Shown: in pieces, positions 1,719 to 17,657 of the stretch
How the letters are laid out: each line of letters starts with the position of its first letter
How positions within the stretch are numbered: position 1 is the stretch's first letter
Origin: Corynebacterium rouxii
GTDB lineage: Bacteria > Actinomycetota > Actinomycetes > Mycobacteriales > Mycobacteriaceae
Assembly: GCF_902702935.1 (NCBI RefSeq)
Contig: NZ_LR738855.1
Coordinates: forward strand, 1,054,001 to 1,118,000
Direction: 5' to 3'
Length of the DNA: 64,000 nt
Position numbers and translations under genes: made by a program
Notes under the pieces: model-generated
What the model was told of the DNA's origin: nothing
Databases searched by the model: none
Seen by the model: only the letters and a program-made list of their open reading frames with translations

Positions 1719-2832
1719 TACCCAAGGCTTTCATGATGGTGCGAAGTTTCGCAGTTGTTTCTTCGACTTCAGCGGCCGCATCAGATTCTGCGACAATTCC
1801 TCCACCAGCCCATGCTCGTGCGGAGGTGCCGTCACCGCTTACCTCGGCACACCGAATAGACACCATGAATTCACCGTCGCCGTGGCTGTCTGCCCAGCCC
1901 ACGGTTCCTGCGTAGAATCTGCGATCTCCTTCCGCAATGCTGATGAGCTCTTCGGCTGCATCTGTGGGGGTACCGCAGATGGCAGGGGTGGGGTGAGTAC
2001 GCATTGCTAATTCAAGTGCAGTAAGCGATGTGTCCTTTAAGGTTCCGGCAACAGGAGTGGCAAGGTGCCACATTTCGTTGGTCTTGGTGAGTTCGGGATT
2101 AGTGGGGATGGTGAGCTTCGAGCAAAGGGGCTCTAATACGTTGCGAAGATGTTCTACAACATAAGAGTGTTCTTGTAGATCTTTATGGGAACGTCGTAGA
2201 AGTTCTGCGTTGGTAGCGTCTATGACGGCATCTGTGCTTCGAGGTGCGGAACCGGCAAGGGGATACGCCGTCACGGTTGACCCTTGTTTTTTAATGAGCA
2301 CTTCTGGTGACGAGCCAACGAGCATTGCCCCTGCAAAATCTTCGCCGGCAGGGGTGAGGTCTGCAATGAAACCGTCGCGGTTGCGGGATAGATCAATCAG
2401 GCGTGCGGCGATAAGTCGTGGATCGACGGCGGGGGAGAACGTCATGTCCACTGCGCGCGCCAAGACGACCTTTTTCAAGGATGTGGACTTGATTGTATTG
2501 ATTGCCGCTGCTACGCGAGCGTGATGCTCTTCGAGGGATGGGACGAGTTTGTCCACTTGGGCATTAACGATGCTGCCTGGGCCTTGTCGGTAATAGGCGT
2601 GTGGTTCTAGCGGGCCTTCTTCTCGGATGATCGAGCGAGGAACCGTAAGTGCGCAGGCGTGGTCGCGTCGAAAAGCAAGGGCGCCGACAACGAGCTCTAC
2701 GCGCCCGCTACGTAAGGCTTCTACCGCTTTCCATGGGTCGGAAAACGTCTCTACGGCACCTTGGGTACGGATAGAACCGTGGCTACGAGAGAGTAAAAAA
2801 TCGGGGGCAGTAGCGGGTCGATGGGCACACAT
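1699..2832 (-). CDS. Isochorismate synthase (MenF/EntC/DhbC family)
   Basis: The 377-residue protein belongs to the chorismate-binding family. It converts chorismate to isochorismate, the entry to menaquinone or siderophore synthesis. Typical C-terminal landmarks are visible: KKVVLARA, FAGAMLVGSSPEVLIKK, the AYPLAGSAPRS stretch, HATPVAGTL-like MWHLATPVAGTL, HPTPAICGTPTDAA, and RRFYAGTVGWADSHGDGEFMVSIR. These are hallmark active-site segments of the family. No isochorismatase or 2,3-DHB genes are adjacent, so menaquinone synthesis is the likelier role (inference). ATG 2832 is preceded on its strand by TAGACT and 8 nt, suggesting a leaderless transcript. Confidence 0.88.
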   Translation of the reverse strand: MCAHRPATAPDFLLSRSHGSIRTQGAVETFSDPWKAVEALRSGRVELVVGALAFRRDHACALTVPRSIIREEGPLEPHAYYRQGPGSIVNAQVDKLVPSLEEHHARVAAAINTIKSTSLKKVVLARAVDMTFSPAVDPRLIAARLIDLSRNRDGFIADLTPAGEDFAGAMLVGSSPEVLIKKQGSTVTAYPLAGSAPRSTDAVIDATNAELLRRSHKDLQEHSYVVEHLRNVLEPLCSKLTIPTNPELTKTNEMWHLATPVAGTLKDTSLTALELAMRTHPTPAICGTPTDAAEELISIAEGDRRFYAGTVGWADSHGDGEFMVSIRCAEVSGDGTSARAWAGGGIVAESDAAAEVEETTAKLRTIMKALGITSFDA

Positions 2833-2840
2833 GTCTTGCC

Positions 2841-2858
2841 AGTCTAGTGCACTAGTCT
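2841..2858. promoter_or_regulatory. Back-to-back leaderless promoters of entC-like gene and gltX
   Basis: The 38-bp gap between the divergent genes holds a perfect 12-bp palindrome, CTAGTGCACTAG (2844-2855). Its two edges form -10 elements: TAGACT on the minus strand (2846-2841) facing the isochorismate synthase and TAGTCT on the plus strand (2853-2858) facing gltX. The two polymerase sites must overlap, so mutual interference is likely. Confidence 0.5.
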
Positions 2859-2870
2859 ACGATGAACGTT

Positions 2871-4355
2871 ATGTCTGATGTTCGTGTACGTTTTTGTCCA
2901 TCGCCGACCGGCACGCCACATGTTGGTATGGTTCGCACCGCTTTGTTTAACTGGGCCCATGCTCGCCACACGGGGGGCAAGCTGATTTTCCGTATTGAGG
3001 ATACGGATGCTGCCCGCGATAGCGAAGAGTCTTACCAGGCGATTATTGACTCTCTGAAGTGGCTCGGAATGGATTGGGACGAGGGCGTTATTGTTGGCGG
3101 CCCTCATGAGCCTTATCGCCAAAGCCAGCGTATGGACGTCTACAAGGATGTCTTGGAAAAACTGAAAGAGGCCGGCTTTGTCTACCCTGCGTACTCGACT
3201 GCTCAGGAAGTGGAGGAGCGCCACAAGGCGGCAGGCCGCGACCCCAAGCTTGGCTATGACAACTTCGACCGCACTCTGACCGATGAGCAAATTGCGGCAT
3301 TTGAGGCAGAAGGCCGTCAGCCGGTATGGCGTTTGCGCATGCCAGAGCAGGATTGGAAGTGGAACGATCTTGTCCGTGGCGAGATTGAGTTCAAGAGCTC
3401 TACTCAGCCTGACTATGTTGTGGCGCGTTCCAACGGTGCACCGTTGTACACCTTGGTTAACCCCGTCGATGACGCATTGATGGGCATTACCCACGTGCTG
3501 CGTGGTGAGGATCTCCTGCCTTCTACTCCTCGTCAGTTGGCTCTTTACGAGGCTCTCAAGGCAATCGGCGTAGCCCAGCAGACCCCTGAGTTTGGCCACC
3601 TGCCGTTCGTTATGGGTGAGGGGAACAAGAAGCTTTCCAAGCGTGATCCTCAGTCCAACCTGTTTAACCACCGTGATGCCGGCATTATCCCAGAGGGCAT
3701 GCTGAACTACCTTGCATTGCTGGGCTGGTCGCTTGCCGGTGAAAAAGACATCTTCTCGGTTGATGAGCTCGTAGAAAACTTCGATGTGACCAACGTCTTG
3801 GCAAACCCAGCTCGTTTCGACCAGAAGAAGCTTGAGGCGATCAACGCAGATCACATCCGTCTTCTTGAGCCCAAGGATTTCGAGCAGCGTTTGCGCGCAT
3901 ATCTCACCGAGTACACGGATTTCCCAGCGGATTATCCGGTAGAGAAGTTCGCAATCGCCGCCGAGTTGGTGCAAACACGCATCAAGGTGCTTGGCGACGC
4001 TTACGGTTTGCTGAGCTTCCTAGCGATCGCTGATGAGGATCTCACCTTGGATGAGAAGTCGGCGAAGAAGAATCTCAAGGAGACGGCAATTCCTGCGCTG
4101 GATGCAGGTATCGCTGCCCTTGAAGAGGTGGAGGAATGGACCACTCCTGCTATTGAAGCTGCTTTGCATAAGGCACTGATTGAGGATCTTGAGCTCAAGC
4201 CTCGCGTTGCTTTTGGTGCTCTGCGTGTTGGCATTTCTGGTCAGGCTGTGTCACCACCTTTGTTCGAGTCGATGGAGCTCTTGGGCAAGGAGTCGACGTT
4301 GACTCGTTTGCGCGCTACTCGTGCGGTTACCCCGTATCAGGTTGCTGCTGAGTAA
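2871..4355 (+). CDS. gltX: Glutamyl-tRNA synthetase
   Basis: Class I aminoacyl-tRNA synthetase of 494 residues that charges tRNA-Glu (and, in many actinobacteria, tRNA-Gln for later amidation). The HIGH-type motif is in [14 protein letters not shown] near the N-terminus and the KMSKS-type motif is KLSKR. RIEDTD and [13 protein letters not shown] are also characteristic. ATG 2871 (MSDVRVRF) fits the family N-terminus better than ATG 2862, which lies only 3 nt after the -10. The gene ends at a strong intrinsic terminator. tRNA-Gln and tRNA-Glu genes follow 1.3 kb downstream, a fitting neighbourhood. Confidence 0.96.
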
Positions 4356-5758: not shown

Positions 5759-5831
5759 GCCCCGTTCGTCTAGCGGCCTAGGACGTCGGCCTCTCACGCC
5801 GGTAACACGGGTTCAAATCCCGTACGGGGTA
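5759..5831 (+). tRNA. tRNA-Glu (anticodon CTC), copy 1
   Basis: A 73-nt cloverleaf. The acceptor GCCCCGT pairs with ACGGGGT, the anticodon loop is CTCTCAC (anticodon CTC), and the T-loop is TTCAAAT. It is base-for-base identical to the copy at 8664-8736. An intrinsic terminator follows. Confidence 0.93.
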
Positions 5832-5836
5832 CAAAT

Positions 5837-8663: not shown

Positions 8664-8736
8664 GCCCCGTTCGTCTAGCGGCCTAGGACGTCGGCCTCTC
8701 ACGCCGGTAACACGGGTTCAAATCCCGTACGGGGTA
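8664..8736 (+). tRNA. tRNA-Glu (anticodon CTC), copy 2
   Basis: Identical over all 73 nt to the gene at 5759-5831. The flanks differ completely: upstream is AT-rich sequence without tRNA-Gln, and downstream is the 40-bp terminator repeat that recurs at 17618. It is the probable anchor of the island that follows. Confidence 0.93.
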
Positions 8737-8738
8737 CC

Positions 8739-8778
8739 AACAAAGCAGCCAACGAAAGTTGGCTGCTTTTCTTTTTGT
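8739..8778 (+). repeat. Left 40-bp direct repeat / tRNA-Glu terminator (island boundary)
   Basis: The sequence from AACAAAGCAGCCAAC to TTTTTGT is repeated at 17618-17657 with one mismatch (loop GAAA here, GAAG there). It is itself an intrinsic terminator: AGCAGCCAAC pairs with GTTGGCTGCT across a GAAA loop, followed by TTTCTTTTT. Its position 2 bases after a tRNA gene suits an integration (att) site. Confidence 0.8.
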
Positions 8779-8881: not shown

Positions 8882-11645
8882 TTGAATACTTATTTTCAAA
8901 GAGAAACCGCCGTTGAAACCTATGGAATGACGGAGAGGAATTTTGCAACTCAACTCTCTGACTATCAAGCAAAATACTTTGCGCACGAACTTGAGCGTAG
9001 CTATGCCAATGACCACGTAGGCAAACTAGCGGGACTGTTATTTGATGCCCAAGTAGAGCCTAAACCACACCAGATCGAGGCAGCGCTATTTGCGCTTAAA
9101 GGTAACGCTACACGCGGCGTGATCCTAGCTGATGAGGTGGGTTTGGGTAAAACGATCGAAGCGGGCATCGTGATTACCCAGCATTGGGCTGAGCGTAAAC
9201 GTAATATCCTGATCATTGCACCAGCGAGCCTTCGGCAACAGTGGAAACAGGAACTATACGAAAAGTTCATGATTCCGTCCGAGCTTTTAGACTCAAAGAC
9301 AAAGTCTGACCTGCTTAGCGGCCAAGGTCGATGCCAAGTCCTCATCACGTCATATGAATTTGTTCAGCAAAACAAGGCTGATTTACTTCGGGTGTGGGAT
9401 CTCATCGTGGCTGATGAGGCACATCGATGACGTAACTTTTATAAGGGGCGTAATCAGGCCAAAGTTGCATCTTCCGGCGGCGACATAATGGATGGTGCGA
9501 AGAAGGTTGTGCTGTTAACAGCTACGTCACTACAGAACAAACTCGAAGAAATCTACGGACTTATTTCTTTGTTTGAGCCAGACTATTTCCGCTCTCTGGA
9601 TGTTTTCCGAGACCGATATGTTAAAGCGAAAAGTACATTCGCTTTACGCTTTTAGTAAATCGCAACGAGCGTTGTCTTCACAGGTGATGCGTAAACGCCT
9701 CGGTTCATCCACCTACGCAGTCGGAATTACTCTTCGCAAGACAGCTCAGCGTTTGGCAGAAGAACTAGCGATGGGTGGACGTAAATCTGGGCAGAAATTC
9801 TTCTTTGATCTCGAGGATGACCTTCTTGATGAGGACCAAGCCGCTATAGAATCTTTTGGTAGTTTTTCAGAACCAGAGGATAACTGGACAACCCCAAAGA
9901 TTCGACAGAAAGTTCAGCAAGAAATCGATGAGTTAAATAAGTACGCTTTGCTAGCGGAGTCTATTCATCAAAACCAAAAGTCGCTCAAACTTGGAGAAGC
10001 CATTGAGCAGGGATTTGCGCGCTTGCGTGATATTGGTGCCCCAGAAAAAGCAATTATTTTCACTGAATACACAGATACCCAAGAATTTTTAGCAGAAACG
10101 CTTCGTAAAACTGGGTACGGTGATGGCCTCGTTTTATTTAACGGTCAAAACAATTCTCCCGAGGCCACACAGATTTACCGCGCGTGGCTTGAGAAAAATA
10201 ATGGTAGTGATGTTATTACCGGTAACGTTTCAGCTGATCGCCGCAAAGCCTTGGTAGATTATTTCTGGGATGAAGGCTCAATCATGATTGCAACCGAAGC
10301 GGCTTCCGAAGGCATCAACCTTCAATTCTGTTCGATGCTCATTAACTACGATCTGCCCTGGAATCCCCAACGCGTTGAGCAGCGTATCGGTCGTATTCAT
10401 CGTTTTGGGCAGAAATACGACGTAGTTATCGTTAACTTTTTTAACGAGGGCAACGCAGCCGAGGCACGTATCTTAGAGCTGCTTCAGAATAAGTTCCATT
10501 TGTTTGACAGTGTCTTCGGAGTCAGTGATGAGGTGCTGGGCCGCATCGAAAGCGGCTTTGATTTCGCTCAAGAAATCGCTGCGATTTATGACAACTACCG
10601 TACTGCTGAAGAAATCAATAAGGCATTTGAAGAACTAGAAGAAAAATATGCCGATACCGTGAGCCAAGACATGGCAGAAGCGCGCGCAGGTGTTTGACAA
10701 CCTAGATCCTTCAGTTCGAGATCGTTTGAAGTCTTATGATGAGCAATCCGGTGAAGTTCTGAATAAGTTTGAACAACTTTTACTCATGCTAACGATCAAT
10801 CGTCTTCAAAATATGCAGATTTTGATGGTGACGGGCGTAATTTCACGCTTAGGCAATCCCCACAAGAAGACATTGTGACCGGGCACTACCACTTTAAATC
10901 CTTGCCGAGTGAGAACTCTAAGCAATATCGATACCACAGCAAACTCGCTCAATATGTGATCGATGGCGCATTAGACTGCGACACTCCTACACGGGAGTTA
11001 GTGTTCAGCATCGGTCAATCTCACCGAGTAAGTTCTCGCATGAAACAATTAGTTGGGCAGTCTGGCACCTTGACGGTCAAAGGTCTGACTTTCACGATGA
11101 AGGCCAACGACAGCGATGTTTCAGAAAGTTATCTTTTAGCTGCGGGTGTTTCTGATAACGGTGAGACTCTTAATCAAGAAGACGTTGCAGAAATGATGGA
11201 TCTAAGCGTTTCTGCGCAAAATGAAGCAGTAGCGAAGATTGACCCAGCAGGCTTTGCTAGAGCTATTGATCAGCAAAAAGCCTCGCTTGAAAAAGAGGTA
11301 CAACACCGAAACTCAAGTTACTACAACCAGCAGGAAGAACTTCTCGAAAGTCAGATTCTCGATCTCGATACAGAACGCCGAAAAGAAGTTCGAGAACTGG
11401 AATATAAACGTAAAGATTTACGCAAGCAAGCAAGCCAAGCAGATGATCCAATGGACCAGCTGAGGCTAAAAAAGAAAGCTCGTGCGTTCGCTGACCAAAT
11501 CGACGAGGTAGAGGCCAAATACCGAAAAGAAAAGCGAGAATTGCGCGACAATGTCGACGAATTGCTTATTCTAATTAGGCAGTCGCTACAGGGTAAACGA
11601 CAGGAAAAAGAACTGTTTACTATCAGGTGGCAGGTCAAAGCTTAA
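8882..11645 (+). pseudogene. SNF2/RapA-type helicase gene, multiply disrupted
   Basis: The pieces assemble into a DISARM DrmD/RapA-like SNF2 helicase. The first piece (8882 or ATG 8927 to 9430) has the Walker A motif ADEVGLGKTIEAG, APASLRQQWK and the DEAH box. A TGA at 9428-9430 interrupts DEAHR|RNFYKGRNQAK, and the same frame continues with LLTATSLQNKLEEIYGLISL. At about 9640 a frame change and apparent loss of roughly 80-90 codons joins it to LYAFSKSQRALSS. The helicase C-lobe (AIIFTEYTDTQEF, ATEAASEGINLQF, RIGRIHRFGQ) follows. Two more frameshifts occur near 10690 and 10815. The last part (10875-11645) ends in a coiled coil. The gene cannot make an intact enzyme. Confidence 0.85.
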
Positions 11646-11668: not shown

Positions 11669-13585
11669 GTGGACCACGAACTGAACGAGATCAATGAAGT
11701 TTCGGGCAGCAGTCCAGATTTTCGTACTGAGCTAGCGGAGCAATTGGCTGAGCTTGCGCCAGAAGCAATTGCTGATGGCAAGATCGATGTAGAAAAGCTT
11801 AAGGAGCTTCTCGAGGGCGACGCCTCTGACACCAGCGAGCGCTTTGGTCTGTTCTGGCCTGGTAAGAAGCGGGCGATGCGTGCCGCGCAGACCCCAACCA
11901 CTGCAACGCTCGTCCCGGACAAGGAGAACTCTAAGGATTGGGATACCACTAAGAACGTCTTTATTGAGGGCGATAACCTCGAAGTACTCAAGATTCTGCA
12001 GAAGCACTACCACGGCAAGATCAAAATGATCTACATCGATCCGCCGTATAACACCGGCAAAGATTTTGTTTACCCAGATAATTACAAAGAAGGTCTTGAT
12101 ACTTACCTTGAGTGGTCAAAGCAGGTCAACGAAGAGGGGAAGAAGCTTTCGTCCAACTCTGAGTCTGAAGGTCGCTTTCACTCGAACTGGTTGAACATGA
12201 TGTATCCCAGGTTGAAGTTGGCGCGTAATCTACTTACAGCGGATGGGGTAATGGCGGTCAGCATTGATGACGATGAGATTCCGCGATTACGCATGATTTT
12301 GGAAGAGATTTTTGGTGAGGGGAACTTTTACGCTCAAATTGTTTGGCAGAAAAAGTATTCCCCAGCAAATGATGCAAAGAAGTTTTCTGATATGCATGAC
12401 TATGTCGTTCTCATCTCAAGATCAGGAAAATTCAAAAGGAATTTATTTCCGAGAACCGAAGAAAACAATAAGCCATATGTCCATGACGACGGCGATGGAA
12501 GAGGTCGGTATCGTACCGGCGACCTCTCGGTTCGAACGTATTCTGCGGCAAATGATTTTAGTATCAGTAATCCGAATACTGGTCAGGACTTTAGGCCTCC
12601 CGCTGGCCGGTGTTGGGCCTTTTCTAAAGCAAATATGGAAGTATTGCTTCGTGAAAATCGAATTTTTTGGGGAAAGACGGGAGAAGGCGCGCCTCAACTG
12701 AAACGATATCTTTCCGAGGTCCAACAGGGAACGGTGCCGACAACTTGGTGGGGGCATGAATTTGCAGGCCACACGGATGCTGCGCGCAAAGAGATACGAA
12801 CTTTGTTCGGTACAACCGCCGTTTTCGATACACCAAAACCAACGTCGCTCATTTGTCGTATTCTCCAAGTAGCAACTTTACCAAAAGAGGATTCTATCGT
12901 TCTGGACTTCTTTGCTGGCTCGGGGACCACCGGTCACGCTGTTATGCTGCAAAATGTCGAGGACGGTGGCAATCGTCGCTTTATTCAAGTGCAATTGCCC
13001 GAGCCTCTTAAGCCCACTCAAACGATCGGAGAACAAGTGCTGTCGACCATCTTTGAGATCTCGATGGAGCGTACCCGAAGAGCGGGAGAAAAAATTCGGC
13101 AAGACTTCGCTGCGGAGATCGGCGAGCGCGAAAAACCGCTTGACGTTGGCTTTCGAGCTTTCAAGCTTTCAGATACTAATTTTGTTAAGTGGTGTACGGA
13201 ATCAAATACGGATGTAACTAAGTTAGAACAGCATCTCTTGGACCTCCGTGGCAGTGCTGACGATAATGCTTCGGCTGACGGGCTCTTGACCGAAATTCTC
13301 ATCAAGCAGGGCTATTCATTGGTCGAACAGATTCGTGAGGTTGAGATTGACGATCTGTCATACAAGGCGGTGGTCCGTGTTGATGAAGACGGAGACGAGG
13401 ACACACTGGTGTTGGCTTACCTCGATGAGCACACCAAGCCAACTTTGGCGCAGCTTCGAGCCGCTATAAATACCAAGCCGGTGCAGTTCATCTTTTTGGA
13501 AGATGCCTTCCAGGGTGATGATCAGCTGAAGACTAACTTGGTGCAGATTTGTAAAACTAACGACGTTGAACTTTGGACGGCATAG
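11669..13585 (+). CDS. Type III-like DNA methyltransferase (Mod), beta-class N6-adenine/N4-cytosine
   Basis: An intact 638-residue enzyme. Catalytic motif IV is DPPYNTG (in MIYIDPPYNTGKDF, about residue 130) and comes before the SAM-binding motif I, FAGSGTTGH (about residue 420). That order defines the beta class used by type III Mod subunits. The region between them is the probable target recognition domain, and the C-terminus is acidic and helical. GTG 11669 was chosen because AAGGAG (11657-11662) sits 6 nt upstream, whereas the frame's earlier start (11627) lies inside the helicase tail. The res gene begins 2 bases after its stop. It should still methylate the chromosome even if Res is off. 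Confidence 0.9.
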   Translation: MDHELNEINEVSGSSPDFRTELAEQLAELAPEAIADGKIDVEKLKELLEGDASDTSERFGLFWPGKKRAMRAAQTPTTATLVPDKENSKDWDTTKNVFIEGDNLEVLKILQKHYHGKIKMIYIDPPYNTGKDFVYPDNYKEGLDTYLEWSKQVNEEGKKLSSNSESEGRFHSNWLNMMYPRLKLARNLLTADGVMAVSIDDDEIPRLRMILEEIFGEGNFYAQIVWQKKYSPANDAKKFSDMHDYVVLISRSGKFKRNLFPRTEENNKPYVHDDGDGRGRYRTGDLSVRTYSAANDFSISNPNTGQDFRPPAGRCWAFSKANMEVLLRENRIFWGKTGEGAPQLKRYLSEVQQGTVPTTWWGHEFAGHTDAARKEIRTLFGTTAVFDTPKPTSLICRILQVATLPKEDSIVLDFFAGSGTTGHAVMLQNVEDGGNRRFIQVQLPEPLKPTQTIGEQVLSTIFEISMERTRRAGEKIRQDFAAEIGEREKPLDVGFRAFKLSDTNFVKWCTESNTDVTKLEQHLLDLRGSADDNASADGLLTEILIKQGYSLVEQIREVEIDDLSYKAVVRVDEDGDEDTLVLAYLDEHTKPTLAQLRAAINTKPVQFIFLEDAFQGDDQLKTNLVQICKTNDVELWTA

Positions 13586-13587
13586 GG

Positions 13588-16535
13588 ATGTCCATGAAGT
13601 TTAAGTTTGATGCGAAACAGGAGTACCAGCTTGCCGCGATTGATTCGGTTGTAGACCTTTTTGATGGTCAGCCGAATGATGCTGGTGATTTCCTTACGAC
13701 GTTCCGGTCGACGCGCGCGCTACCGGAAGTTGATGGTACGCAGGCGCTGGATTTTGATTTGAGTCAAGAAGTTGGTGCGGTCGGTAATAACTTCCTTCTC
13801 GATGAGGAGACGGTGCTTGAGAACCTGAAGGTGGTTCAGAATGCTCGAGGGCTAGAGCCTGCTCAGGCGCTCAAGGATGGACTGCAGTTTGATATTGAGA
13901 TGGAGACCGGCACCGGTAAGACATATGTCTACCTGCGTACTATCTTCGAACTAGCCCAGAAGTACAACTTCACCAAGTTCGTTATCTTAGTTCCGAGTGT
14001 GGCTATCCGGGAGGGCGTGAAGACCAGCATCGATTTGATGCATGATCATTTCCGACAGCTCTATCCGGATCTGCCGTTTGACCATATGGTCTATAGCGGT
14101 AAGAATGCCGAAGAGGTGCAGTCTTTTGCGACCTCGACCAGCATCCAGATCATGATCATGACGATTGGTTCGGTTCGTGGCCGGGGCAATCACCTGATCA
14201 TGAACCAGAACCGAGACAAACTCAATGGTCTGAGGCCAATCGACTTCCTCAAAGCGACCCGTCCGGTCCTGATTATGGATGAGCCGCAGAATATGGAGTC
14301 GGATCTGTCTAAGTCAGCTCTGGTGGGGATGGACCCAGCCTTTGTCCTGCGTTACAGTGCAACTCACCGCAAGACCCGTAACGTGACCTACCGCTTGGAT
14401 CCGGTCGATGCGCATGAGCTTGGGTTGGTTAAGCAGATTGTGGTGGCTGAAGCGACAGAGCACGGTGGGGATGCCAAGCCGTATATCAAGTTGCTAGAGG
14501 TTAAGAGTAATCCTTGGCAGGCTACCTTAGAGTTGGTGTGTCGGAAGAAGGATGGATCTTTTGATCGTCAGGTCAAGAAGGTCAAGCAAGGCCAAGACCT
14601 AGAGAAAGTGACCAACAATCCGGTCTACGACAACAACTGGAGGATCAATGAAATCAATCTTGAGGGTCCTGGTTTTATCGAGCTGACCAACCACGGGATC
14701 CTTCATGTCGGTGAGGCGATTGGCAACAACGATGAAGCTGTTTACAAGGAGATGATCCGGGAAACCATCCGGGAGCATTTCCGTAAAGAGTCGTTGATGC
14801 GCAAGTACGGGATCAAAGTGCTGAGTTTGTTTTTCGTTGACAAAGTTGCCAGTTATTTGGGTGATGGCACTGATAATGCCACCGCCGACGGCAAGTTTGC
14901 CCAGTGGTTTGATGAGTTGTTCATTGAAGAACGGGAGAGATTCCCTCAATACAAGGAACTGCTGCCGCAGGATCCGGTCGAGCTTCGTCGAGCGTACTTC
15001 TCGCAGATCAAGAAGGGCGTCTTTGGTGATACCTCCGGCGCGACTGCTAAAGACGACGACTCTTATGATCTGATCATGAAAGACAAGGCTCGTCTGCTTA
15101 GCGAGGACGAGCCAGTGCGTTTTATCTTCTCTCACTCGGCCTTGCGTGAAGGTTGGGATAATCCGAATGTTTTCCAGATCTGTACGCTGCGAGAAATGGG
15201 GTCAGAGACGGAGCGTCGCCAGACTATCGGACGCGGTCTACGTTTGCCAGTGAACCAGGATGGCGAGCGCGTTTCCGACCGATCTATAGCTCAGTTGACG
15301 GTTATTGCAAATGAGTCTTACCAGCAGTTCGCCAACAATTTGCAGAATGAGTATAAGAAGGCTGGCGTGGCAATTGGATATATCCGTAAAGGAGACTTTG
15401 CCAAGCTGCCGAAGCCGGAGTCTAATGGCGACGAAAACCTGGGATATACCGCGTCCATGGAAATCTGGGAGGATCTCAAGGCCCGAGGTTATCTAGATAA
15501 GGATGGCTATGTCACGGACAAGTTCACCCCAGAGGAGGACGGTTTCGCCCTAGATCTGGACGATGAATATAGCCCGGTTGAAACGGCGATTGTGGAGATT
15601 CTCCGTCGTGCGAACATCTCCCATTATGTTAAGTCGAAGCGTGCCCGGAAAACGCGCAAGCTGAATAAGCAGTTGTACTTCACGTCGCGTGAGTTTGAAG
15701 AATTCTGGGAGAAGATTAGTCGGCGCACGACGTACAGCGTGACGGTGGATCGCGATGTTCTGATCAAGAATGCGGTCCAAAAGATCAAGCGGGCCGAGCA
15801 GATTGATCCTCTGCGTATTGAGGTGAAGAAGGCCAAGCTGACAATTGCGCGTGGTGGAACGAAGGGCGCTGAGACAAGTAGCCGGACTACCGATCTCCGG
15901 GGGGGGGACACAAACTGCCCGATATTGTGACGGAGCTGCAGGAGGCGACGTCGCTGACGCGTAAGACGATCATCGATATCCTCATCCAAAGTGGTCGTCT
16001 TGAGGAGTTCATTTCCAACCCGAACGACTACATAAAAATGGTTAGAGGAATTATCGAAGCTGAATTGGCTGCCATCGTGACCGAGGGCGTGCAATACGAG
16101 AAAATTGGCGGAAGCATTTATTCTCTGACAGAACTCCAGGAAGACGGGGTAGAGGAGAAGCAATACTTCCTGGACAACCTATATAAGGTGAAGAACCAGG
16201 AGAAAACCGACTACGACTTCATTGTTTACGACTCTGAGACGGAGCGACAGTTCGCCGAACTTCTTGATAGTCGTGAAGACATCAAGCTCTTTTTGAAACT
16301 GCCGCCGAAGTTCAAGATTGGCACCCCGGTTGGCCCCTACAACCCAGACTGGGCGATTGTGAAGCACGAGGATGGCGAGGACACGCTCTACATGATTCGA
16401 GAAACGAAGAGCACGATGAACGAGAATCTCCTGCGTGCGACTGAACAAGCCAAAATTGACGCTGCTACAGAGCATTTCAAGACCATTGGAGTGAGCTATG
16501 CCAAGGCGGCGCCAGGGAAGTGGAATATTGACTAG
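13588..16535 (+). pseudogene. Type III-like restriction helicase-nuclease (Res), interrupted at a G9 tract
   Basis: ATG 13588 opens a DEAD/SF2 translocase: Walker A METGTGKTYVYLRT (about residue 105), motif II LIMDEPQNMES, and motif VI RRQTIGRGLRLP. The reading ends early at TGA 15928-15930, just after nine Gs at 15899-15907. The +2 frame (15909-16535) carries the missing C-terminal domain, beginning HKLPDIVTELQEATSLTRKT and containing the PD-(D/E)xK-type nuclease residues NPDWAIV...YMIRETKS. One extra G (G10), or loss of two (G7), would restore a 982-residue protein. As read, translation gives a helicase without nuclease. The gene is either a phase-variable gene in its OFF state or a pseudogene. 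Confidence 0.85.
15899..15907 (+). repeat. Poly-G (G9) tract inside res
   Basis: Nine consecutive Gs follow ...GATCTCC and precede ACACAAACTG. This is the only homopolymer this long in the island's genes and it coincides exactly with the frame break, as in contingency loci that vary by slipped-strand mispairing. Confidence 0.9.
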
Positions 16536-16710: not shown

Positions 16711-17448
16711 TTCCAAAGGGACCACATCATCATTGTTGACGATCCCGTCTCGAGTCTTGATAGTGAAGTATTCATGGGCGTATCGACATACCTATGGGAT
16801 CAAGTTCTTACTGCGGGCCATATCTGTCAGCTGTTCTTAATGACCCACAATTTTGAGCTGTTTCGTCAGTGGGATATTCAATTGCAAGGTGCGAAGAAGT
16901 ATGTAAAAGGCTGTACATATGAGATTCTATCGCGTCATCGTCCCGTTAAGGGTGAGATTATTCGTGAACCTGTAATCAAGAATTGGCCTCCGAACCGTGC
17001 AGTTCGAAAAAAGATGAGGTCGAATTATCATCATGGTTTTATGCTCCTAGAAGAAGCAAAACGATCATTGGATCAGAAGGATAACATGGAGACTAGATTG
17101 GATGCTCAGTTATTGTTCCCCAATGTCGCTCGTCGAGTTCTGGAAACGTTCTTGGCTTTCAAGATCCCTAGCATGGTCGGAAATTTTGACGGCTCCATGC
17201 GCGAGGCGGGAAATCTACTGGAGCGACAGGGATATCAGGGCGCTAACGCGCTTCGTCTGCGTACTACGCGCTTTTTGCACGCACTTTCGCATGATGACAC
17301 ACCTGAATCGGGTGCGGTAATCCAACCTGATGAAACGCGTGCAGCGCTAGCCGCAGTATTTGAGTTTATGAATGCACTTGATAGCGAACATATGGACGGC
17401 CTCTGTGATGTTCTTGGTCTGGACAAGGCAACGCTATTGACCTCTTAG
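16711..17448 (+). pseudogene. 3' remnant of an AAA-family ATPase (AAA_13/RloC-like)
   Basis: The open frame begins FQRDHIIIVDDPVSSLDSEVF, whose VDDPVSSLD is the Walker B/D-loop block of SMC/ABC-like AAA ATPases, a group that includes anticodon nucleases and phage-defence ATPases. About 230 further residues follow to the TAG at 17446-17448. The Walker A and coiled-coil portions (normally 400-600 residues) are absent. A start at ATG 16774 would omit even the Walker B, so it is best read as a truncated gene. It sits at the right end of the defence-type island. Confidence 0.7.
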
Positions 17449-17617
17449 CTTTGGTGCGTGATCTATTCTTTTAGATATCTATCAAGCTCAATTGAGCCAA
17501 TTTTCGTAGCATTTTAAGAGGCTTATCCCTCTAACTTAATATTCTGTTCTGCTATATTGGATTGCCTTAGTAATGCTTGACAAGTCGCTACATATGTTGA
17601 ATGCTACATGGAGAACA
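17449..17617. other. AT-rich non-coding stretch at the right end of the island
   Basis: No gene is visible. Sequence such as ATATTCTGTTCTGCTATATTGG is AT-rich compared with the surroundings and may contain stray promoter-like elements. It ends at the right copy of the 40-bp repeat. No integrase fragment or tRNA piece was found here. Confidence 0.4.
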
Positions 17618-17657
17618 AACAAAGCAGCCAACGAAGGTTGGCTGCTTTTCTTTTTGT
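17618..17657 (+). repeat. Right 40-bp direct repeat (island boundary)
   Basis: 39 of 40 bases match 8739-8778, in the same orientation. The stem of the hairpin is kept and the loop is GAAG instead of GAAA. Unlike the left copy it has no tRNA in front, so it looks like the duplicated target or attachment site at the far end of the insertion. Core gene ppc begins 135 bases later. Confidence 0.8.

What the first reader, a model, noticed from the sequence alone, without database searches (positions are those of the whole stretch)
15890..15935. G9 tract switches the nuclease domain of a type III-like Res out of frame
Nine Gs at 15899-15907 coincide with the end of the Res helicase frame. The nuclease domain lies in the next frame, and the two join exactly with G10 or G7. 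The rest of the gene has no other lesion and the nuclease residues (PDW...ETK) are conserved, which argues for a reversible OFF state, not old decay. Phase variation is well known for type III mod genes of mucosal pathogens but unusual in res and in Corynebacterium. Mod, which is intact, would then keep methylating without restriction.
Basis: partly seen in the sequence, partly recalled or inferred. Interest (0 to 1): 0.75.

Follow-up and report, generated by a model that had tools for sequence, protein, structure and literature searches.

The report
Slippery G-run splits restriction gene
In a Corynebacterium diphtheriae-type genome a run of nine Gs cuts the DNA-cutting domain off a type III restriction enzyme; a near-identical intact copy exists, which suggests the run changes length between strains, but switching back and forth within one strain has not been shown.

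Summary
G9 at 15899-15907 is the window's only G/C run of 7 or more and lies exactly where a type III Res gene changes frame. The length-switch idea is partly supported. A near-identical full-length Res exists (P0001); its last 200 residues equal those of a separate nuclease fragment (P0124), and the longest contigs behind the two are 75,138 and 75,139 bases. Five fragments besides the window's own, two named C. diphtheriae, argue against a base-count error. None of 19 fetched relatives' loci has a run of 7 or more in res, but 4 carry G/C runs of 8 or more inside mod, two of them splitting it. Of 13 loci with runs of 9 or more beside or inside a recognised gene, 6 or 7 are DNA-methyltransferase genes. 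Against a live switch here: a private change at a conserved nuclease residue, a multiply broken helicase gene upstream, an ATPase remnant downstream. No other strain's tract was read; reversibility is untested. Best reading: a slippage-prone tract in res that turns restriction, not methylation, on and off across strains.

The parts
8664..8739 (+). tRNA-Glu(CTC) at the left edge of the island
   Evidence: ARAGORN
8736..8778 (.). left copy of a 43-base direct repeat (95%) flanking the island
   Evidence: blastn within the window
8882..11645 (+). pseudogene of a SNF2/DrmD-like helicase, broken into three ORFs: TGA at 9428, about 59 residues missing with a frame change near 9637, degenerate stretch about 10695-10830
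   Evidence: One open frame of 951-980 codons in 4 of 4 relatives' loci looked at (two of them cut by the locus end); tblastn with L073's protein; Pfam and PADLOC
11669..13585 (+). mod: type III DNA methyltransferase, intact, no homopolymer run of 7 or more
   Evidence: PF01555; PADLOC MTase_III 1.4e-188; closest database protein 97% identical over the whole length
13588..15930 (+). res, helicase part, ending at TGA shortly after the tract
   Evidence: PF04851; PADLOC REase_III; frame and stop
15899..15907 (+). G9 tract at the conserved Leu-Arg-Gly-Gly codons, where the frame changes
15927..16535 (+). res, nuclease part, in another frame; GTG 15927-15929 overlaps the stop 15928-15930 of the helicase frame
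   Evidence: PF19778 1.7e-34
16774..17448 (+). remnant: C-terminal part of an AAA_13 ATPase
   Evidence: PF13166 profile positions 546-709 of 713; PDC-S06
17615..17657 (.). right copy of the 43-base direct repeat; the island between the copies is absent from the nearest held genome G001

Best explanation
The G run is a slippage-prone (contingency) tract between the helicase and nuclease domains of a type III Res. It arose in the C. diphtheriae lineage at conserved Arg-Gly-Gly codons, which in one relative (L001) are already nearly all G. Replication slippage changes its length; in some strains the frames meet and Res is whole, in others, this one included, Res ends just after the tract and lacks the nuclease. 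Mod is unaffected, so methylation stays while restriction is lost. Shown: the split here; an intact and a split form that agree in 200 of 200 nuclease residues; no run in the res of 19 relatives' loci; no MutS_V match in six Corynebacterium genomes; recurrent runs in mod of related systems. Inferred: that the strains differ in tract length, that the change is reversible, that it matters for phage defence or DNA uptake.
For: P0001 (978 aa) differs from the window at 1 of its first 760 residues, at 2 in the nuclease part and by lacking the last residue, and shares the derived His at 772. P0124, a separate nuclease fragment, equals P0001 in all 200 residues after its start and shares the shorter end; the longest contigs of the two are 75,139 and 75,138 bases. 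Fragments P0121 (the window's own) to P0126 stand for 24 listed contigs and four distinct sequences over the shared stretch. In 6 of 6 close relatives the codons read LRGGY with no run longer than 4; 0 of 19 fetched loci have a run of 7 or more in res. Runs of 8 or more lie inside mod in 4 of 19 loci (in one locus, L078, the start of mod is missing), two in frame and two splitting it; 3 runs of 9 or more in mod+res against 0.17 expected, Poisson P about 0.0007, the window not counted. MutS_V: 0 of 6 genomes, 11 of 14 controls positive. NucS is described as unable to correct short indels (PMC8228993, passages).
Against: No tract length was read in any other strain; DNA-level comparison is with other species only, and the fragments' breaks were not seen in DNA. 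The window's nuclease has Gly at a position that is Asp in 174 of 233 matched proteins, Pro in 50, Glu in 5, Ser in 3, and Gly only in the window's own. The adjacent helicase is dead by several lesions. P0125 begins MGHKLP, which implies a start codon inside what is a pure G run here, so that lineage may be stably split (inference from protein only). In C. acnes, G/C tract variation followed clades, which the authors read as slow accumulation rather than active modification (PMC4746626, passages). The NucS review also says that DnaE proofreading may suppress almost all short indels.
Confidence: 0.56

Rival explanations
1. Ordinary loss of function: the G run was a mutation hotspot, one or a few slippage events split res, and the gene has since been drifting inside a decaying island. 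Nothing switches back in practice.
For: Helicase gene of the same island broken by several lesions; ATPase remnant downstream; private Asp-to-Gly change in the nuclease; separate nuclease fragments in several sequences; in C. acnes tract variation tracks clades and one R-M system was inactivated five times independently (PMC4746626, passages).
Against: Res otherwise has no stop or shift over 2.9 kb. An intact and a split form agree in 200 of 200 nuclease residues, so the break is recent or repeated there. Runs recur in mod of related systems.
Confidence: 0.33
2. The gene is leaky rather than off: RNA polymerase or the ribosome slips on the nine Gs and makes some full-length Res.
For: A run of nine identical bases at the junction.
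Against: No signal for programmed shifting was looked for beyond the run. Relatives' res has no run (0 of 19 loci), so this would not be a conserved device.
Confidence: 0.05
3. The split gene works as two proteins: the stop of the helicase frame overlaps the GTG start of the nuclease frame, so ribosomes re-start and a separate nuclease chain assembles with Mod and the helicase chain.
For: Overlap at 15927-15930; separate nuclease fragments behind 24 listed contigs.
Against: The overlap follows from ordinary Val-Thr codons; I saw no ribosome-binding site at the usual distance (own reading). Of 21 matches with at least 49% identity and near-full coverage, 20 lie in frames of 978 or more codons; the exception, G258, has a res interrupted elsewhere.
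Confidence: 0.03
4. The base count is a sequencing or assembly error in this genome.
For: Homopolymers are error-prone in some technologies (general knowledge).
Against: Separate nuclease fragments P0122-P0126 in other public assemblies, P0122 alone in 17 contigs, the longest of 2,362,553 bases. Their DNA was not seen, so they need not share the same break.
Confidence: 0.03

Closest known systems
EcoP15I (type III R-M; Res structure 4ZCF)
   Same: P0001 matches its Res (whole-sequence E 3e-64, best stretch residues 68-586); a weak second stretch (i-Evalue 0.0074) aligns the nuclease with the PD and ETK residues
   Different: Here helicase and nuclease lie in two frames; switching of EcoP15I was not looked up
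Phase-variable type III mod genes (phasevarions) of Haemophilus, Neisseria, Helicobacter, Moraxella
   Same: Repeat in the coding region of a type III R-M gene, frame-dependent expression (PMC3874151 and PMC6789123, passages)
   Different: There the repeat is in mod and methylation switches; here mod has no run and the nuclease part of res is cut off, so no methylation switch is expected
NgoAV hsdS poly-G (type I, N. gonorrhoeae)
   Same: Poly-G length change creates an early stop in an R-M subunit (PMC6789123, passages)
   Different: Type I; changes specificity; not a nuclease domain
Homopolymer phase variation in actinobacteria (M. tuberculosis espR and, by title listing and recall, glpK; C. 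acnes tracts)
   Same: Homopolymer indels described as high-frequency and reversible (PMC11898584, abstract; glpK: listing only) or as polymorphic (PMC4746626, passages)
   Different: Other genes; the C. acnes authors saw clade-wise, slow change

Membership tests
Type III restriction-modification system | Mod with N6/N4 methyltransferase domain | tested here: met
   PF01555 7.5e-35; PADLOC MTase_III
Type III restriction-modification system | Res with superfamily 2 helicase and a PD-(D/E)xK nuclease domain in one chain | tested here: not met
   Both domains present but in two frames in this genome; one chain in P0001 and in 20 of 21 close matches
Type III restriction-modification system | mod and res adjacent, same strand | tested here: met
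   mod ends 13585, res starts 13588 or 13594
Type III restriction-modification system | methylation and ATP-dependent cleavage activity | not testable with these tools
   needs biochemistry or methylome data
[quoted passage not shown]
[quoted passage not shown]
   P0001 intact and P0124 split, equal in 200 of 200 residues, longest contigs one base apart; repeat numbers not read
[quoted passage not shown]
   needs reads or colony typing
Phasevarion (methylation switch) | repeat in mod, so that methylation switches | tested here: not met
   no run of 7 or more in mod here; runs of 8-10 in mod of 4 of 19 relatives' loci
Decaying pseudogene | additional inactivating lesions in res | tested here: inconclusive
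   no other stop or shift; one private change at a conserved nuclease residue, effect unknown

The most novel reading that the evidence does not exclude
Corynebacterium as a genus uses G/C contingency tracts in restriction-modification genes: in type III mod, type I hsdM, type ISP and probably DUF1156 genes of several species, and, in C. diphtheriae, in res. There the switch sits in the nuclease, so a population varies its restriction barrier to phage and foreign DNA while keeping a constant methylome and constant self-protection: a restriction-only switch, the reverse of the phasevarion.
Probability: 0.38. Interest if true: 0.75.

Novelty: new variant of a known kind. Interest (0 to 1): 0.52.

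Why it matters
Known type III switches toggle methylation and thereby gene expression. A switch confined to the nuclease would toggle only the barrier to incoming DNA, with no risk of self-cutting, because Mod never turns off. If real in C. diphtheriae, strains of one clone could differ in phage and plasmid acceptance. It also points to a genus in which tract-borne variation of R-M genes seems recurrent. I saw no report of it in the listings (19 of 19 papers listed; 3 of 3; 8 of 8; 15 of 57; 12 of 31); these cover open-licence papers only, and I saw titles and the beginnings of abstracts.

Tried and rejected
Same-strain DNA: the window's assembly is not held. The nearest genome, G001 (96% over 2,501 bases at ppc), has no match to the nuclease part. 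Plasmid records gave only distant matches (0 of 152 records covered 80% of the query). A structure model of P0001 was poor (mean pLDDT 56.9, pTM 0.30) and was not used. Brevibacterium senegalense L039 has a res frame change near a G7 about 30 bases from the homologous site, but its res carries two other breaks, so I do not count it. The survey of type III mod repeats by Atack et al. 2018 is not held, so I cannot say whether it lists Corynebacterium.

Tract survey bookkeeping: 77 distinct runs of 9 or more in 17 genomes, counted by me from the listings. Of these, 74 were read in context (69 in L109-L173, five in L074, L076, L081 and L087) and three were not fetched (two of G034, one of G111); three more from G001 were read (L106-L108). 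G068 and G159 (267 and 30 overlapping matches) were left out; G005 (no match) and G007 (2 overlapping matches) were not used. Of the 72 runs in L106-L173, 28, in 25 loci, have a long open frame through or across them and 44 have none. I scanned 37 frame pieces from those 25 loci with Pfam; 10 loci gave a hit: L112, L114, L141 (R-M methyltransferase domains), L124 (DUF1156, a methyltransferase by my recall only; no Pfam hit on the far side of its run), and L126, L127, L131, L134, L135, L151 (other). In some of the last six the run may lie outside the gene proper; 15 loci gave no hit. With the mods of L074, L076 and L081 this makes 7 of 13, or 6 of 13 without DUF1156. P rests on an assumed 1-3% R-M share of genes: 1.6e-11 to 3.2e-8 for 7 of 13, 1.6e-9 to 1e-6 for 6 of 13, 2e-6 to 1.5e-4 for 4 of 10 and 1.1e-4 to 2.8e-3 for 3 of 10 without the type III mods. 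That share was not measured, and the genomes were chosen for carrying this Res family.

Full report
What is there. The window carries an 8.8-kb island between a tRNA-Glu(CTC) gene and ppc, flanked by 43-base direct repeats and absent from the nearest held genome, G001. It holds a broken helicase gene, an intact mod, a split res and the end of an AAA_13 ATPase gene. The species is inferred: a separate nuclease fragment differing from the window's at two residues is named C. diphtheriae by its source (P0122); the 96% match of the ppc region with G001 fits a sister species.

The observation. G9 lies at 15899-15907, the only G/C run of 7 or more in the window. A nine-G match is expected 0.18 times per window by shuffling. 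The helicase frame ends at TGA 15928-15930; the nuclease frame is open from 15882 to the TAG at 16533. Six relatives (L001, L009-L013; 84-91% identical in the matched parts) have the codons for LRGGY without a run, and the only length difference near the junction is at the end of the run. In L001 the codons CGG-GGT-GGG are one synonymous change from a long run, which suggests how the tract arose (inference).

Is it a type III Res? Yes by sequence: ResIII and RE_endonuc domains, PADLOC REase_III over both parts, and EcoP15I Res as the only solved relative found, with the PD and ETK residues aligned in a weak second stretch. Mod is intact and methyltransferase-like; the closest database Mod is 97% identical over its whole length.

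Strain-level evidence. A search with the helicase part found P0001, a full-length Res of 978 residues from an assembly without a name. It differs from the window at 1 of the first 760 residues, at 2 residues of the nuclease part, and ends one residue earlier. A search with the nuclease part alone found separate fragments: the window's own (P0121) and P0122-P0126, two of them named C. diphtheriae; P0122 stands for 17 contigs, all six for 24. P0124 equals P0001 in all 200 residues after its start, including a His at 915 and the shorter end; its longest contig is 75,139 bases against 75,138 for P0001. P0001's cluster has 42 members whose state I could not see.

Genus context. Of 242 Corynebacterium genomes, 36 have a match to the nuclease part at E up to 1e-3. 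I fetched 19 loci from 17 of them. Runs of 8 or more G/C lie inside mod in four: L074 and L076 (G10, frame kept), L081 (G10, frame lost; its res is also interrupted) and L085 (C8, frame lost). L087 has a G10 about 240 bases before the mod match and another farther off. No res has a run of 7 or more. Three runs of 9 or more in mod+res stand against 0.17 expected from the genomes' own run counts, P about 0.0007; the window, being the starting point, is not counted. Other runs of 9 or more lie in a type I-like N6 methyltransferase (L112, frame kept), hsdM (L141, frame kept), a type ISP enzyme (L114, frame lost) and beside a DUF1156 domain (L124, frame change). With the three mods these are 7 of 13 loci with a Pfam hit next to or across the run, or 6 of 13 if DUF1156, a methyltransferase by my recall only, is left out; the other six are unrelated genes. 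Of 72 runs read, 44 have no long open frame through or across them. The genomes were selected for carrying this Res family, so this is a lead, not an unbiased rate.

Mechanism. Slippage in a G run may go uncorrected: MutS_V was found in 0 of 6 Corynebacterium genomes against 11 of 14 controls, and NucS, the actinobacterial substitute, is described as unable to correct short indels (PMC8228993, passages). The same review holds that DnaE proofreading may suppress almost all short indels, which weakens the point. In the split state Res keeps the helicase and loses the nuclease. Because type III restriction needs the Res nuclease while Mod can methylate on its own (established knowledge, recalled), restriction should be lost and methylation kept. 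None of this was measured.

Evidence against a live switch in this strain. Position 909, inside the nuclease next to NPDW, is Gly here; among 233 proteins that match the motif it is Asp in 174, Pro in 50, Glu in 5, Ser in 3 and Gly only in the window's own. The helicase gene has a stop, a missing stretch with a frame change and a degenerate stretch, where 4 of 4 relatives' loci looked at have one frame of 951-980 codons. P0125 begins MGHKLP, which needs a start codon within the run and so suggests an interrupted, stable tract in that lineage (inference). In C. acnes, tract variation was clade-wise and one R-M system was inactivated five times independently (PMC4746626, passages). I therefore hold a length-variable contingency tract at 0.56 and plain decay at 0.33.

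Comparison with the known. Type III phase variation as read in PMC3874151 and PMC6789123 (passages) sits in mod; PMC3874151 adds that in such systems the nuclease may not be functional owing to mutations in res. A tract in res with an intact mod is the reverse arrangement. The listings (Corynebacterium terms) and (20 of 59 listed; 10 of 30 listed) showed me no report on Corynebacterium R-M tracts; subscription papers and the main survey were not available.

Noticed in passing
window 8882-11645: SNF2/DrmD-like helicase gene that accompanies this mod-res pair in several relatives is a multi-lesion pseudogene here.
   Followed up: partly
window 16774-17448: C-terminal remnant of an AAA_13 ATPase, similar to the candidate defence family PDC-S06.
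   Followed up: no
window 8664-8778 and 17615-17657: Island edges: tRNA-Glu(CTC) and a 43-base direct repeat that by eye holds a terminator-like hairpin; another tRNA-Glu, identical over 74 bases, lies at 5759-5832.
   Followed up: partly
L114 around 803; L112 around 774; L141 around 938; L124 around 884: G/C runs of 9-10 in a type ISP gene (frame lost), an N6 methyltransferase and an hsdM gene (frame kept), and beside a DUF1156 domain (frame change) of other Corynebacterium genomes.
   Followed up: partly
L081 about 6746 and 2488-3790; L085 about 5698: Type III mod genes split at a G10 and at a C8 run; in L081 res is also interrupted by about 1.3 kb.
   Followed up: partly
L039 5939: Brevibacterium senegalense res changes frame near a G7 close to the homologous place, with further breaks; perhaps draft errors.
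   Followed up: partly
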